The position numbers and the translations under genes were made by a program. Below are positions 46,850-52,621 of a stretch of 61,919 nucleotides of DNA, in pieces. The stretch is from Eubacterium sp. (lineage in GTDB: Bacteria > Bacillota > Clostridia > Peptostreptococcales > Anaerovoracaceae), in the NCBI GenBank assembly GCA_017511535.1, contig JAFWJS010000051.1:1-61919 (forward strand). The letters run 5' to 3'. Under the pieces are notes generated by a model that was not told the origin of the DNA, did no database searches, and saw only the letters and a list, made by a program, of their open reading frames with translations. How positions within the stretch are numbered: the first letter of the stretch is position 1; every line of letters starts with the position of its first letter.

Positions 46850-47245
46850 TCATATCAGGTCGCTCAGCTTCTTGCTGTGAAAGAAATCTCTCGTAAGCTC
46901 GTCGTACTCCTTCCACATCGGAAGGGTCTTGCAGTCAGCCGACCTCGGGCATTCGGCGGCGTCTTTTGACAGGCAGGCTACTGCAGCGAGAGGCCCCTCG
47001 GTCGCGTCAAGTATCTCCTGAACGGTGTACTCTTCAGGTTTTCTGCACAGCTTATATCCGCCGCTCTTACCGCGGATACCCGTGATCATGTCGTTAGTGA
47101 CAAGGTCTTTCACGATTATTTCAAGATACTTTTTCGATATACCCTGTCTTTCTGCCACATCCTTCAGCGCTATGTAATGACCATCCGTATTCTCAGCCAG
47201 ATCAATCATGACACGGAGCGCATATCTTCCTTTTGTTGAGATCAT
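46850..47245 (-). CDS. Rrf2-family regulator, IscR-like
   Basis: A 131-aa winged-helix regulator. The N-terminus STKGRYALRVMIDLAE and the recognition helix region ISKKYLEIIVKDLV are typical of Rrf2 proteins. Three cysteines in CLSKDAAECPRSADC (spacing C-x7-C-x5-C, residues about 91-105) are placed like the [2Fe-2S] ligands of IscR, where spacing is C-x5-C-x5-C. So it probably senses Fe-S status, though a CymR-like cysteine role is possible. It is divergent from the iscS/iscU operon, and palindromes on three promoters (47299, 47419, 50102) fit as its operators. Confidence 0.9.
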   Translation of the reverse strand: MISTKGRYALRVMIDLAENTDGHYIALKDVAERQGISKKYLEIIVKDLVTNDMITGIRGKSGGYKLCRKPEEYTVQEILDATEGPLAAVACLSKDAAECPRSADCKTLPMWKEYDELTRDFFHSKKLSDLI

Positions 47246-47418: not shown

Positions 47419-47452
47419 ACCTATTGACACAATAGGTAAATAAGGATAATAT
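47419..47452 (+). promoter_or_regulatory. promoter with Rrf2 box for the GATase-iscS-iscU operon
   Basis: TTGACA (47424-47429), 17 nt, TAATAT (47447-47452). A palindrome ACCTATT-GACAC-AATAGGT (47419-47437) covers the -35 box exactly. The same half-sites recur at 50102, so repression by a common dimeric regulator is likely. Confidence 0.8.
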
Positions 47453-50101: not shown

Positions 50102-50141
50102 ATATAACCTATTGACACGATAGGTTATATGATGATATCTT
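50102..50141 (+). promoter_or_regulatory. promoter with extended Rrf2 box upstream of the sulfhydrylase
   Basis: A perfect palindrome with 11-bp arms (50102-50112 and 50120-50130, centre TGACACG) overlaps the -35 TTGACA (50112-50117). TATCTT (50136-50141, 18 nt spacing) is the likely -10. The core ACCTATTGACAC matches the box at 47419. Confidence 0.75.
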
Positions 50142-50171
50142 TAAACTGCAAAGAGAAAGGAGGCGCGGAAG

Positions 50172-50315
50172 ATGATAAGAAGATCAAGCGGAAAACGATT
50201 CTGTAAGATGTGTATGCGAATGCTGATCTCCCGGACATGGAAACAGGCCGGGGCGTCAGGATCTGATTATCCGCGCCTTGCCGATACACGATGTCGGACC
50301 AGTCTAAGCAGATAA
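50172..50315 (+). CDS. candidate 47-aa leader peptide
   Basis: A small ORF with a strong site (AAAGGAGG, 8 nt, ATG). The predicted peptide is basic with three cysteines (CKMC near residue 11, another near 41). Its frame covers the 5' arm of the long-range stem at 50228. It could be a leader peptide whose translation affects folding, or simply chance in a structured RNA. No homology is known to me. Confidence 0.35.
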   Translation: MIRRSSGKRFCKMCMRMLISRTWKQAGASGSDYPRLADTRCRTSLSR

Positions 50316-50385
50316 AGGCTGTATGTCATAGAGTGTGAATCATATGTCCGGGAGCTTACAGATCGGCGCCCGGATTTTTACGGGC
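50228..50385 (+). promoter_or_regulatory. candidate riboswitch/attenuator in the O-acetylhomoserine sulfhydrylase leader
   Basis: The 11-bp arm at 50228-50238 can pair perfectly with 50344-50354, closing a junction with at least two inner hairpins (GGAT-loop-ATCC near 50259-50272; CCGATA-CACGA-TGTCGG near 50281-50297). The 3' arm of the closing stem (50348-50355) can pair instead with GCGCCCGG (50366-50373), followed by ATTTTT: a terminator. The two pairings exclude each other, the classic switch layout. No known aptamer (S-box, T-box, cobalamin) fits what I recall. Transcription would begin near 50150. Confidence 0.55.
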
Positions 50386-50429
50386 AAAACGAATGAATGA
50401 CTCAGGTACATATGAAAAGGAGAAATAAA

Positions 50430-51713
50430 ATGAGTAATTACAGATTCGAGACATTACAGCTTCACGTAGGACAGGAGCAGGCAGACCCTGCTACAGATTC
50501 AAGAGCAGTTCCTATCTATCAGACGACGGCGTACGTATTCCATAACAGCCAGCATGCGGCAGACAGGTTCGGCCTTGCTGATCCGGGAAATATCTATGGA
50601 AGACTTACGAATTCCACACAGGGAGTCCTTGAAGAAAGAGTCGCGGCGCTTGAGGGGGGTTCAGCGGCACTTGCTGTAGCGTCAGGAGCGGCAGCGATAG
50701 CGTATACCGTCCAGGCTCTTGCGGCAAACGGAGGGCATATAGTCGCGCAGAAGACTATATACGGCGGGACATTCAATCTGCTTGAGCATACGCTTCCGCA
50801 GTACGGTATCAAAACGACATTTGTCGACGCACACGATCTGGATGAGATCGAAGGCGCTATAAAAGAGGATACCAGAGCGGTATTTCTGGAGACTCTCGGA
50901 AACCCTAACAGCGATATACCTGATATCGACGCAGTCGCTGACATCGCGCACAGGCATGGACTTCCGCTCGTGATAGACAATACGTTCGGTACGCCGTACC
51001 TTATCCGTCCTATCGAGCACGGAACTGATATAGTGGTCCATTCAGCGACAAAATTCCTTGGCGGACATGGTACTACTCTGGGCGGTATAATCGTGGAATC
51101 GGGCAAGTTCGACTGGAAGGCGAGCGGAAGATATCCTCAGATCGCTGACCCTAACCCGAGCTATCACGGAGTATCGTTTGCGGACGCAGTTGGGCCGGCG
51201 GCTTTCGTCACATACATAAGAGCGATCCTCCTCAGAGACACAGGCGCGGCGATATCGCCGTTCAACGCGTTCCTTCTGCTTCAGGGCATAGAGACACTGT
51301 CTCTCAGGGTCGAGCGTCACGCAGAGAATACCGGGAAAGTCGTAGAGTTCCTGAACAGTCATCCTCTGGTCGAGAAGGTCAATCATCCGTCGCTTCCGGA
51401 CCATCCGGACCACGCGCTGTATGAGAAGTACTTCCCGAACGGCGGCGGGTCTATATTCACTTTCAACATCAAAGGCGGCCGTGAGGAAGCTTGGAAGTTC
51501 ATTGACAATCTGAAGATATTCTCTCTTCTCGCTAATGTGGCAGATGTCAAGAGTCTGGTGATACATCCTGCGTCAACGACGCACTCACAGCTCACGGATG
51601 AGGAGCTGGCGGATCAGGGGATCGGTCAGAATACGATCCGTCTGTCGATAGGAACAGAGAACATAGACGATATAATCGAGGATCTGGAGAACGGATTCGC
51701 GGCAATACAGTAA
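50430..51713 (+). CDS. O-acetylhomoserine aminocarboxypropyltransferase (sulfhydrylase)
   Basis: A PLP enzyme of the Cys/Met metabolism family, 427 aa, that makes homocysteine from O-acetylhomoserine and sulfide. It opens with FETLQLHVGQEQADP and carries the PLP lysine in VHSATKFLGGHGTT. TNSTQGVLEERVAALEGG and IHPASTTHSQL are standard. AAAAGGAG before the ATG at 50430 sets the start; the frame runs to 50397. Sulfide use and the Rrf2 box make it part of the sulfur-responsive set. It may be co-transcribed with the binding lipoprotein 41 nt later. Confidence 0.93.
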   Translation: MSNYRFETLQLHVGQEQADPATDSRAVPIYQTTAYVFHNSQHAADRFGLADPGNIYGRLTNSTQGVLEERVAALEGGSAALAVASGAAAIAYTVQALAANGGHIVAQKTIYGGTFNLLEHTLPQYGIKTTFVDAHDLDEIEGAIKEDTRAVFLETLGNPNSDIPDIDAVADIAHRHGLPLVIDNTFGTPYLIRPIEHGTDIVVHSATKFLGGHGTTLGGIIVESGKFDWKASGRYPQIADPNPSYHGVSFADAVGPAAFVTYIRAILLRDTGAAISPFNAFLLLQGIETLSLRVERHAENTGKVVEFLNSHPLVEKVNHPSLPDHPDHALYEKYFPNGGGSIFTFNIKGGREEAWKFIDNLKIFSLLANVADVKSLVIHPASTTHSQLTDEELADQGIGQNTIRLSIGTENIDDIIEDLENGFAAIQ

Positions 51714-51754: not shown

Positions 51755-52621
51755 ATGAAAAACAATATCCTGAAATATACAGCGGTTATCGCAATACTGA
51801 TCCTGACCATAGGAACTGCAGCGGCTCTGACATCATGCAAAGGCGGAGAAGAGAGCGGATCCGGCGGCAAAACAGTATACCGTACACTGGATGAGATAAA
51901 AGAGTCAGGCGAGATCAACCTCGGCGTCTTCTCCGACAAAAGTCCGTTCGGTTTTGTTGATGAGAACGGACAGTATCAGGGGTATGACATATATCTGGCT
52001 GAGAGACTGGGTAAGGACCTCGGTGTGAAGATCAACTATGTATCAACTGAGGCAGCCAACAGAGTCGAGTATCTGGAGACAGGCAAAGTCGACATCATAC
52101 TTGCGAACTTCACGGTAACAGACGAGAGGGCTGAGAAAGTCGACTTCGCTCTGCCGTATATGAACGTTTCGCTCGGCGTAGTATCTCCGGACAGCCGTAT
52201 AATAGCAGACGTGTCTGACATTAAAGACGACGATGAAGTCATCGTTATATCGGGAACAACTGCGGAAACTTATTTTACAGAGAATCTCCCGGACGTGAAA
52301 CTTCAGAAGTACGATACATACGCGAACGCCAAGAACGCTCTGGAAAACGGTACAGCCGCAGCCTGGGCAAATGATAACACAGAAGTCATCGCGTTCGCTA
52401 ATGAGAACAAAGGATATACGGTCGGTATCACAGAGCTTGGAAGCAAGGATACGATCGCGCCGGCAGTGAGCAAAGGAAACGAGACTCTGCTCAACTGGCT
52501 TAACGAAGAACTGACGGCGCTGGGATCTGAAAACTTCTTCCATGCCGCGTATGAAGAGACGCTTCTCGATACTTACGGAAAAGATTACGAAGAGGAGCTG
52601 GTCGTAGAACCGGGCAAATGA
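51755..52621 (+). CDS. amino-acid ABC transporter substrate-binding lipoprotein
   Basis: An exported family-3 solute-binding protein, 288 aa. It has a signal segment (residues about 8-26) with lipobox ALTSC, a Gly/Ser linker, then the bilobed binding fold: INLGVFSDKSPFGFVDENGQ, YQGYDIYLAERLGKDLG and the hinge VDIILANFTVTDERAEKVDF. Its position directly after the sulfhydrylase suggests cystine or a related sulfur amino acid. No permease or ATPase genes follow, so its partners are elsewhere. It has a strong ribosome site (AAAGGAGG) and a terminator after it. Confidence 0.9.
   Translation: MKNNILKYTAVIAILILTIGTAAALTSCKGGEESGSGGKTVYRTLDEIKESGEINLGVFSDKSPFGFVDENGQYQGYDIYLAERLGKDLGVKINYVSTEAANRVEYLETGKVDIILANFTVTDERAEKVDFALPYMNVSLGVVSPDSRIIADVSDIKDDDEVIVISGTTAETYFTENLPDVKLQKYDTYANAKNALENGTAAAWANDNTEVIAFANENKGYTVGITELGSKDTIAPAVSKGNETLLNWLNEELTALGSENFFHAAYEETLLDTYGKDYEEELVVEPGK

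What the first reader, a model, noticed from the sequence alone, without database searches (positions are those of the whole stretch)
50142..50429. Candidate undescribed riboswitch or attenuator ahead of the O-acetylhomoserine sulfhydrylase
Seen: a perfect 11-bp stem (50228-50238 with 50344-50354) closes a junction with inner hairpins. Its 3' arm can instead pair with 50366-50373 to make a GC-rich stem followed by ATTTTT. Two exclusive pairings with a terminator are the hallmark of transcriptional switches. Known: homocysteine and cysteine genes in Bacillota are often controlled by S-box or T-box RNAs. I find neither the S-box core nor the T-box AGGGTGGnACCGCG. Inference: a different ligand-sensing RNA, stacked on an Rrf2-controlled promoter.
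Basis: partly seen in the sequence, partly recalled or inferred. Interest (0 to 1): 0.75.

Follow-up and report, generated by a model that had tools for sequence, protein, structure and literature searches.

The report
Cysteine leader-peptide switch before metY
The RNA ahead of this sulfur-metabolism gene holds a tiny cysteine-containing reading frame and two competing RNA folds, so a ribosome that runs short of cysteine probably switches the gene on; similar leaders sit before other cysteine and methionine genes in related bacteria.

Summary
The stem is real: 11 perfect base pairs at 50228-50238/50344-50354; 3 of 300 shuffles do as well. The alternative terminator is there too. The riboswitch reading is not supported: the leader encodes a Shine-Dalgarno-led peptide (50172-50315...FCKMCMRMLISRT...), and the stem's 5' arm lies inside this ORF.

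Of 94 metY loci (window included), 35 carry a matching peptide, mostly MCCRMxxSRA. A covariance model finds relatives in other families of the class and three genomes outside it, ahead of metY, cysK-like, cystathionine-type and metF-like genes and ABC transporters.

74 of 75 leaders have a Cys codon within five codons before a CGA-ATG or CTG-A(T/C)G. That frame starts at a good ribosome site in 61 of 75; the other two in 1 and 0. The antiterminator covaries in two alignments; a U-tailed hairpin follows in 33 of 34.

Best reading: a cysteine leader-peptide transcription attenuator on a promoter with a conserved dyad. A third pairing, the leader's SD with the inner hairpin's 3' strand, co-varies and may make OFF the default. 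No expression data exist here.

The parts
50107..50125 (+). ACCTATTGACACGATAGGT: conserved dyad (Rrf2-operator type, label recalled) that contains the -35 box TTGACA (50112-50117); -10-like TATCTT ends at 50141
   Evidence: within 3 mismatches upstream of 66 of 75 leaders
50159..50163 (+). Shine-Dalgarno GGAGG of the leader ORF; 50160-50169 is complementary to 50270-50279
50172..50315 (+). leader-peptide ORF, 47 codons: MIRRSSGKRFCKMCMRMLISRTWKQAGASGSDYPRLADTRCRTSLSR
   Evidence: nearest relative L002 encodes MTIERITTTDLMCMRMLISRTWKTTGAPGSDYPRLADTRC
50202..50222 (+). regulatory codons: Cys TGT 50202-50204, Cys TGT 50211-50213, Met ATG 50214-50216, then CGA-ATG 50217-50222
   Evidence: Cys codon within the 5 codons before CGA/CTG in 74 of 75 leaders
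50228..50238 (+). a: 5' arm of the antiterminator stem P1, inside the ORF
50250..50255 (+). P3 5' strand (GGGGCG); this region (a', 50246-50255) can also pair with a
50274..50279 (+). P3 3' strand (CGCCTT); 50270-50279 is also complementary to the leader's own SD region
50344..50354 (+). b: 3' arm of P1, most of which is also the 5' arm of the terminator
50346..50379 (+). intrinsic terminator: b paired with c (50366-50373), then the U tract
   Evidence: such a hairpin at or near b in 33 of 34 leaders of A1 (L047 none; L054 weak and mostly outside b)
50193..50391 (+). whole covariance-model match (101.5 bits, E 1.2e-21; the window is in the training set)
50430..51713 (+). regulated gene: O-acetylhomoserine sulfhydrylase (metY)
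   Evidence: TIGR01326, 627.5 bits against a cutoff of 495.1
51755..52621 (+). next gene: family-3 ABC solute-binding protein, perhaps the same regulon (in L075 a 65% identical gene, cut by the locus end, has its own copy of the leader)
46850..47245 (-). Rrf2-family regulator, candidate binder of the dyads
   Evidence: below the cutoffs of both IscR and CymR
47419..47437 (+). second perfect copy of the dyad, upstream of rrf2

Best explanation
A cysteine-responsive leader-peptide transcription attenuator. Shown by sequence and computation: (1) an SD-led ORF, commonly near 40 codons, with Cys codons about 14 codons in; (2) a P1/P2/P3 antiterminator whose 5' arm lies in the ORF, 11 nt after the codon that precedes CGA, about the reach of a ribosome held there (in the window the last Cys codon is one codon further up, 14 nt from P1); (3) a terminator that shares the 3' arm of P1; (4) a stop codon that lies between the two arms in all 34 leaders of A1; (5) co-variation of the leader's SD with the 3' strand of P3. 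Inferred: when Cys-tRNA(Cys) is scarce the ribosome stalls on the Cys codons, a ribosome queued behind it covers the SD, P1-P3 forms, b is sequestered and RNA polymerase reads through into metY (ON). When cysteine is plentiful the ribosome runs to the stop codon, breaks P1-P3, and b pairs with c to terminate (OFF). With no ribosome the SD pairs with P3's 3' strand, a pairs with a', and the window's terminator is again favoured (default OFF). A Rrf2-type regulator probably controls initiation above this.
For: Peptide core in 35 of 94 metY loci. Frame control: frame 0 61/75, +1 1/75, +2 0/75 (9 of 84 loci dropped for lack of the anchor; A1 32/34, others 29/41). Cys at codon -1 in 61/75 and at -2 in 61/75, at least one within five codons in 74/75 (A1 33/34, others 41/41); the number of Cys codons varies in whole codons and TGC replaces TGT. 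Covariation: A1, 34 leaders, 91.4% of cells paired, 13 of 20 pairs with double changes, 0/500 shuffles on all five measures; A4, 48 further leaders, 81.7%, 16 of 20, 0/500 on four measures and 107/500 on the fifth. U-tailed hairpins at or near b in 33 of 34 and 48 of 50. Ribosome-state ensembles: antiterminator favoured in 15/34 free, 23/34 stalled, 29/34 stalled plus queued, 12/34 at the stop codon; window 0.2/7.5, 4.0/4.6, 9.8/0.1 and 2.8/5.6 expected a:b/b:c pairs. Stop codon 17-53 nt before b in 34 of 34. Downstream genes are mostly sulfur amino acid genes. SD:P3-3' pairing beats permutation, 0/2000 and after thinning 0/5000, while two control segments do not.
Against: No expression, ribosome-profiling or term-seq data. 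RNAalifold on A1 by itself finds only P1, with 3 of 10 pairs doubly changed; P2 and P3 were named by eye. P2 is poor in the window (2 of 4 pairs), and P2/P3 are 67-70% paired in A4. The shuffle controls do not keep relatedness. The ensembles are equilibrium models that allow pairing across the ribosome: in 5 of 34 leaders the terminator stays favoured even when stalled plus queued, in 12 of 34 the antiterminator stays favoured at the stop codon, and with an initiating ribosome added at the stop state the window itself goes to a:b (9.9). The minimum-energy fold of 50142-50400 has neither P1 nor the terminator, and the simple terminator scan missed the terminator. A1 was picked with a peptide pattern that fixes the RM-to-SR spacing and favours C/W/M/F/Y before it, and A4 with a model holding sequence, structure and terminator, so spacing and part of the enrichment are by construction. 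The near-invariant CGA-ATG is not explained by Cys sensing. The window has Met, not Cys, at position -1, and Met codons flank the Cys codons, so methionine may be co-sensed. 51 of 94 metY loci showed neither leader pattern.
Confidence: 0.88

Rival explanations
1. An undescribed riboswitch that binds SAM, cysteine, homocysteine or OAH directly, with the ORF a coincidence.
For: Strongly conserved nucleotides (CGAATG, CTCCCGGGC/GCCCGGGAG) and a multi-stem fold with a terminator; no Rfam class matches.
Against: An SD-led open frame exists in the coding frame only (61/75 against 1/75 and 0/75); the number of Cys codons changes by whole codons; outside the codon region, the P1 strands and the terminator no stretch is as well conserved (by eye).
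Confidence: 0.05
2. A leader peptide that senses methionine, or both sulfur amino acids, rather than cysteine alone.
For: ATG at codon +1 in 73 of 75, at -3 in 52 of 75 and at -4 in 37 of 75; several controlled genes belong to methionine metabolism (metY, metF-like, NlpA-type lipoproteins).
Against: Cys, not Met, fills positions -1 and -2 in 61 of 75 each; cysK-like genes carry the element (11 of 53 model loci); one run has four Cys codons in a row (L166).
Confidence: 0.15
3. A cysteine-dependent arrest peptide (TnaC-like), in which the nascent chain RMxxSRA and not tRNA scarcity stops the ribosome.
For: R/L-M and S-R-A are conserved at peptide level, CGA is almost fixed, and CGAATG also occurs beside Cys codons in unrelated-looking leaders.
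Against: Residues before the Cys run and after SRA vary widely; in L052 the RNA segment is kept but the frame shifts (by eye); SRA is explained by the RNA stem.
Confidence: 0.08

Closest known systems
Classical leader-peptide transcription attenuators (trp, his, leu, phe operons of Proteobacteria; recalled)
   Same: Short SD-led ORF with codons for the pathway's amino acid, alternative antiterminator and intrinsic terminator, ribosome position as the switch.
   Different: Cysteine codons; Clostridia and relatives; the antiterminator arm lies inside the ORF just after the regulatory codons; one conserved RNA architecture is re-used ahead of several sulfur genes.
Polycysteine sORFs of mycobacteria and other Actinobacteria (Seliverstov 2005, PMC1262725, passages read; Canestrari 2020, only its citation seen)
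   Same: Runs of Cys codons in a short ORF ahead of cysteine genes.
   Different: PMC1262725 reports no conserved terminator hairpins in Mycobacterium and Cys runs near the stop codon; here there is an intrinsic terminator, CGA-to-stop is most often 78 nt (22 of 75), translation is SD-led. Three of these peptides, the window's included, have no Pfam or NCBIfam match above cutoff.
Histidine leader peptides of Bacillus hisS*/hisZ (Naville and Gautheret 2010, PMC2965389, section 10 and passages read)
   Same: Leader-peptide attenuation in a Gram-positive lineage where T-boxes are the usual device.
   Different: Amino acid, genes, lineage and RNA architecture.
S-box (SAM) and T-box leaders
   Same: Control of Met/Cys genes in Bacillota by premature termination (recalled).
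   Different: No S-box or T-box match in the window or in 20 relatives' loci; the sensor is an ORF.

Membership tests
Leader-peptide transcription attenuator | Short translated ORF with a ribosome-binding site | tested here: met
   SD of at least 5/6 and open in frame in 61 of 75; other frames 1 and 0. Translation itself not shown.
Leader-peptide transcription attenuator | Codons for the amino acid made or used by the controlled genes | tested here: met
   Cys codon before CGA/CTG in 74 of 75; downstream genes metY, cysK-like, metF-like, cystathionine-type enzymes, ABC transporters
Leader-peptide transcription attenuator | Mutually exclusive antiterminator and intrinsic terminator | tested here: met
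   (the window's terminator has one internal mismatch and is not listed by the simple scan)
Leader-peptide transcription attenuator | Ribosome position decides which fold forms | tested here: inconclusive
   Modelled only: antiterminator favoured in 29 of 34 when stalled plus queued, 12 of 34 at the stop codon
Leader-peptide transcription attenuator | Premature termination relieved by starvation for the amino acid | not testable with these tools
   needs RNA from cells
S-box / SAM riboswitches | Match to the Rfam model | tested here: not met
T-box leader | Match to the Rfam T-box model | tested here: not met
Actinobacterial polycysteine sORF | Cys run near the stop codon, no conserved terminator | tested here: not met
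   Cys codons lie early (start to CGA 45 nt in 34 of 61; CGA to stop 78 nt in 22 of 75) and a terminator is present
Rrf2-controlled promoter | Operator bound by the regulator | not testable with these tools
   A conserved dyad over the -35 box is seen; binding not tested

The most novel reading that the evidence does not exclude
A re-used class of cysteine attenuators in Clostridia and beyond with a built-in single-ribosome logic: the 3' strand of the inner hairpin is the anti-Shine-Dalgarno of the leader itself, so without a ribosome the leader closes and terminates, and only a ribosome stalled on Cys codons with a second one queued at the start codon (about 15 codons behind) opens the gene. 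The near-invariant CGA-AUG codon pair, also seen beside Cys codons in unrelated-looking leaders, would be a programmed translation element of its own.
Probability: 0.4. Interest if true: 0.75.

Novelty: new variant of a known kind. Interest (0 to 1): 0.6.

Why it matters
In Bacillota the familiar RNA sensors for sulfur amino acids are S-box and T-box leaders (recalled); a conserved cysteine leader-peptide attenuator is a different solution. It predicts a cysteine/methionine regulon (metY, cysK, metF, cystathionine-type enzymes, NlpA-type and amino acid ABC transporters) in rumen and gut Lachnospiraceae and relatives, many known only from metagenomes, gives a ready covariance model for annotation, and offers a testable case of an attenuator whose 5' arm is its own coding sequence and whose SD is gated by the same hairpin.

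Tried and rejected
Known RNA class: Rfam at gathering score on the window and on 40 relatives' loci gave no sulfur-related hit; the only two hits were a purine riboswitch and a tRNA. A permissive scan of the leader gave four weak hits.

Pairing of CGAAUG with CAUUUG upstream of b: looked at by eye and rejected, because the CAUUUG side is not conserved (A1) and the pairing would cross P1.

The first passes showed no leader in six relatives (L002, L003, L006, L009, L010, L012) that I had read on the wrong strand; after correction L002 and L003 have it, the other four do not match the pattern.

P2 as an essential stem: kept only as a family feature, since the window has 2 of its 4 pairs.

Model hits L156 (24.7 bits; inside a longer ORF) and L142 (28.2 bits, ahead of a short-chain dehydrogenase-like protein, name recalled) are probably false; L138 has no identified downstream gene.

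Class of the Rrf2 protein: IscR and CymR models both match below their cutoffs, so it is left unassigned.

Literature: nine searches listed no description of this Clostridia leader; the library holds open-licence papers only, and I judged most entries by title and abstract start.

Full report
OBSERVATION. The stem CTCCCGGACAT/ATGTCCGGGAG is at 50228-50238/50344-50354 exactly as reported. It is the longest perfect stem in the stretch, and 3 of 300 dinucleotide shuffles have one as long. Its 3' arm can pair instead with 50366-50373, giving a hairpin 50346-50375 (10 pairs around one mismatch) followed by Us; the simple terminator scan does not list it. Folding of 50221-50385 is better than all 200 shuffles (z -3.9) and contains the stem. 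The minimum-energy fold of 50142-50400 contains neither stem nor terminator; it pairs the SD region with 50270-50279 and has a GCCCG/CGGGC hairpin that needs bases after the U tract. Rfam has no match at gathering score in the window, and four far-below-threshold matches in the leader at E up to 10.

WHAT WAS MISSED. The leader contains an ORF at 50172-50315 with a full Shine-Dalgarno: MIRRSSGKRFCKMCMRMLISRTWKQAGASGSDYPRLADTRCRTSLSR. The stem's 5' arm encodes part of ISRTW.

RELATIVES. I used 94 metY loci: the closest metY locus of 14 of the 17 genus genomes (the window's own among them; the other three genomes had only matches of 44-46% identity) and 80 from genome contigs (capped at 80). A small ORF matching [CWMFY].{0,4}[RL][MI]..S[RQ] lies within 600 bases upstream in 35 of 94. 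Many read M-C-C-R-M-x-x-S-R-A-x-x-M-A-G-A. The nearest relative, L002, reads MTIERITTTDLMCMRMLISRTWKTTGAPGSDYPRLADTRC. Eight of 94 have a different short leader (N[FY]R.GR); the remaining 51 showed neither pattern. The covariance model later scored the 59 loci without the first pattern and found three more at E up to 0.1: L062 and L097 (41.4 and 30.9 bits, ahead of metY) and L075 (86.1 bits, ahead of another gene).

STRUCTURE. A1 aligns 34 of the 35 leaders; L088 was dropped because its segment is identical to that of L051. RNAalifold alone predicts P1 only, with 3 of 10 pairs doubly changed. I named P2 and P3 by eye. For P1 (10 bp), P2 (4 bp) and P3 (6 bp) together 91.4% of cells are paired, 13 of 20 pairs show changes on both sides, and 0 of 500 shuffles reach any of the five measures; sliding the partner by 1 to 3 columns gives 29-53% paired. 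P1 itself is nearly invariant (5 of 10 pairs never vary; 3 change on both sides). A covariance model from A1 was run on the window's genome (1 copy) and on draws from family (18 of 247 genomes), order (25 of 393), class (14 of 391) and phylum (5 of 398) (the window's genome is in each, and the draws overlap). In the class draw hits lie in families labelled f37, f40, f53, f68 and f69, plus the probably false L156 in f80. The phylum draw adds three genomes of two families outside the class, with the leaders MTELNRSNACCCRMLFSRAFNVAWRFAMQ, MYGVNNTCKTAAWVCRMCNSRACDYGQLHSSSLSCG and MTGFSKLCCCCRMTFSRAFNMARRFDIA, each ahead of a metY-like ORF (by eye). A4 aligns by MAFFT 48 of the 53 model loci L111-L163 (L111, L112 and L129 left out as repeats of A1 genomes; L142 and L156 left out as weak): 81.7% of cells paired, 16 of 20 pairs with double changes, 0 of 500 shuffles on four measures and 107 of 500 on the fifth, the number of pair types. 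These loci were chosen with a model that contained the structure, so A4 is not a blind test, and the shuffles do not keep relatedness. A U-tailed hairpin at or near b was found in 33 of 34 leaders of A1 (L047 none; L054 weak and mostly outside b) and in 48 of 50 others.

TRANSLATION. Frame control on 75 leaders (34 of A1 plus 41 of 50 others; 9 lacked the anchor): an SD of at least 5/6 with a frame open through the start of P1 is found in 61 in the Cys frame (A1 32 of 34, others 29 of 41), 1 in +1 and 0 in +2. For A1 an open frame, but not its SD, was part of the selection. In 61 of 75 the codon just before CGA/CTG is Cys, in 61 of 75 the one before that; 74 of 75 have at least one Cys among the five. 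The exception, L047 (FY for CC), has no terminator either. The run is lengthened or shortened by whole codons. From the codon before CGA to P1 is 11 nt in the anchored leaders, because the patterns used require it; this is about the reach of a ribosome beyond its A site (recalled). In the window that codon is Met and the last Cys codon ends 14 nt before P1. The start codon is 45 nt before CGA in 34 of 61, and the stop codon lies 17-53 nt before b in 34 of 34.

HOW IT WORKS. With everything upstream of P1 removed, the minimum-energy fold has at least 8 of 10 P1 pairs in 26 of 34; with the ribosome at the stop codon and only downstream RNA free, b has 5 or more pairs downstream in 31 of 34. A stricter ensemble test, which masks only ribosome-covered bases and ends the RNA near the U tract, gives antiterminator over terminator in 15 of 34 (free RNA), 23 (stalled), 29 (stalled with a second ribosome at the start codon), 12 (at stop) and 14 (at stop plus initiating). 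For the window the expected a:b / b:c pairs are 0.2/7.5, 4.0/4.6, 9.8/0.1, 2.8/5.6 and 9.9/0.0; the last figure is against the simple model. These are equilibrium calculations, not kinetics.

A THIRD PAIRING. In the free window RNA the leader's own SD region (50160-50169) pairs with 50270-50279, which holds the 3' strand of P3, and a pairs with a'. Across 61 leaders with a good SD, the SD binds its own P3 3' strand better than those of others (mean -12.47 against -10.15 kcal/mol, sd 0.29; 0 of 2000 permutations), while the P3 5' strand (361 of 2000) and a downstream segment (1521 of 2000) show nothing. After thinning to 41 leaders the result stands (0 of 5000; controls 938 and 2440 of 5000). 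In free RNA this pairing reaches 4 or more expected pairs in 12 of 34, so it is a feature of part of the family. It would make OFF the default in the window and limit leader translation to the first ribosome; a comparable masking of the trp leader's ribosome site is recalled, not looked up.

PROMOTER. The -35 box sits in ACCTATTGACNNRRTAGGT. The window has two perfect copies, 50107-50125 and 47419-47437, the latter next to the rrf2 gene; with both strands and up to 3 mismatches there are 5 matches at 3 places, which 0 of 100 shuffles reach. The motif lies within 3 mismatches upstream of 66 of 75 leaders. The Rrf2 protein matches IscR and CymR models below both cutoffs.

REGULON. Downstream of the 53 model loci L111-L163 (window included), grouped by BLASTP: 28 Cys/Met-metabolism PLP enzymes (22 of metY length and 6 of about 385 aa), 11 cysK-like (L144 a fragment), 6 NlpA-type lipoproteins, 2 permease-like, 2 ABC ATPases, 1 metF-like, and 3 unclear or probably false (L138, L142, L156). 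Families were checked for representatives: cysK (TIGR01139, L123) and metF (TIGR00676, L126) above cutoff, L118 an ABC ATPase, none of the 25 models shown above its cutoff; L157 Cys_Met_Meta_PP, L147 NlpA lipoprotein and L155 ABC_tran above cutoff, L145 permease model below its cutoff. In L075 a copy precedes a solute-binding protein 65% identical to the first part of the window's 51755-52621.

KNOWN OR NOT. Cys-codon sORFs are described for Actinobacteria (PMC1262725, passages read; Canestrari 2020 seen only as a citation in PMC13236596 and PMC9094748), and PMC1262725 found no conserved terminator hairpins in Mycobacterium. PMC2965389 (section 10 and passages read) reports histidine leader peptides in bacilli as, to its authors' knowledge, the first outside Proteobacteria and Actinobacteria apart from ermC; its one mention of cysteine is in a reference title. 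Nine searches of the held library listed nothing on this element. I therefore call it a new variant of a known kind: it works like a classical attenuator, but sensor, lineage, architecture and gene set differ.

Noticed in passing
L005, L007, L036, L046, L060, L086, L090, L102 (upstream of metY): A second short-leader family, N[FY]R[FN]GRM, in some members followed by Cys codons or a stop, in 8 of 94 metY loci; 7 of the 8 have CGAATG there. Possibly another Cys or arrest leader.
   Followed up: partly
window 50217-50222 and the leaders: CGAATG (Arg-CGA, Met-ATG) in 61 of 75 leaders (CTGATG in 12, CTGACG in 2); it recurs beside Cys codons in leaders the model does not match, such as L084, L096, L058 and L080. 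No pairing partner was found by eye.
   Followed up: partly
window 47419-47437: Second perfect copy of the dyad between rrf2 and the next gene, suggesting autoregulation.
   Followed up: no
L075 4513-4708: A copy of the element ahead of an amino acid ABC solute-binding protein 65% identical to the window's 51755-52621, while that locus's metY has none.
   Followed up: partly
L123, L125, L127, L128, L132, L137, L139, L140, L143: In 9 of 10 anchored cysK-like leaders the CGA codon is replaced by CTG; L144 keeps CGAATG. CTG also occurs in five metY leaders (L004, L109, L130, L131, L133).
   Followed up: partly
window 50290-50330 against L002: The window's leader lacks the TRC-stop end of its nearest relative, reads seven codons further, and has a longer loop before b (segments of 198 and 171 nt).
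   Followed up: no
L084, L097, L107, L062, L096: Other small ORFs rich in Cys codons ahead of metY, 10 Cys in L084; the model matches only L062 and L097, weakly.
   Followed up: no
L004, L051, L070, L081, L103 just after the U tract, and window 50381-50385: A CCGGG-like or CGGGC stretch beyond the U tract could pair with c in read-through RNA (by eye).
   Followed up: no
L043 1507-1608 (-): A purine riboswitch (71.3 bits) in the metY neighbourhood of a relative, presumably for another gene.
   Followed up: no
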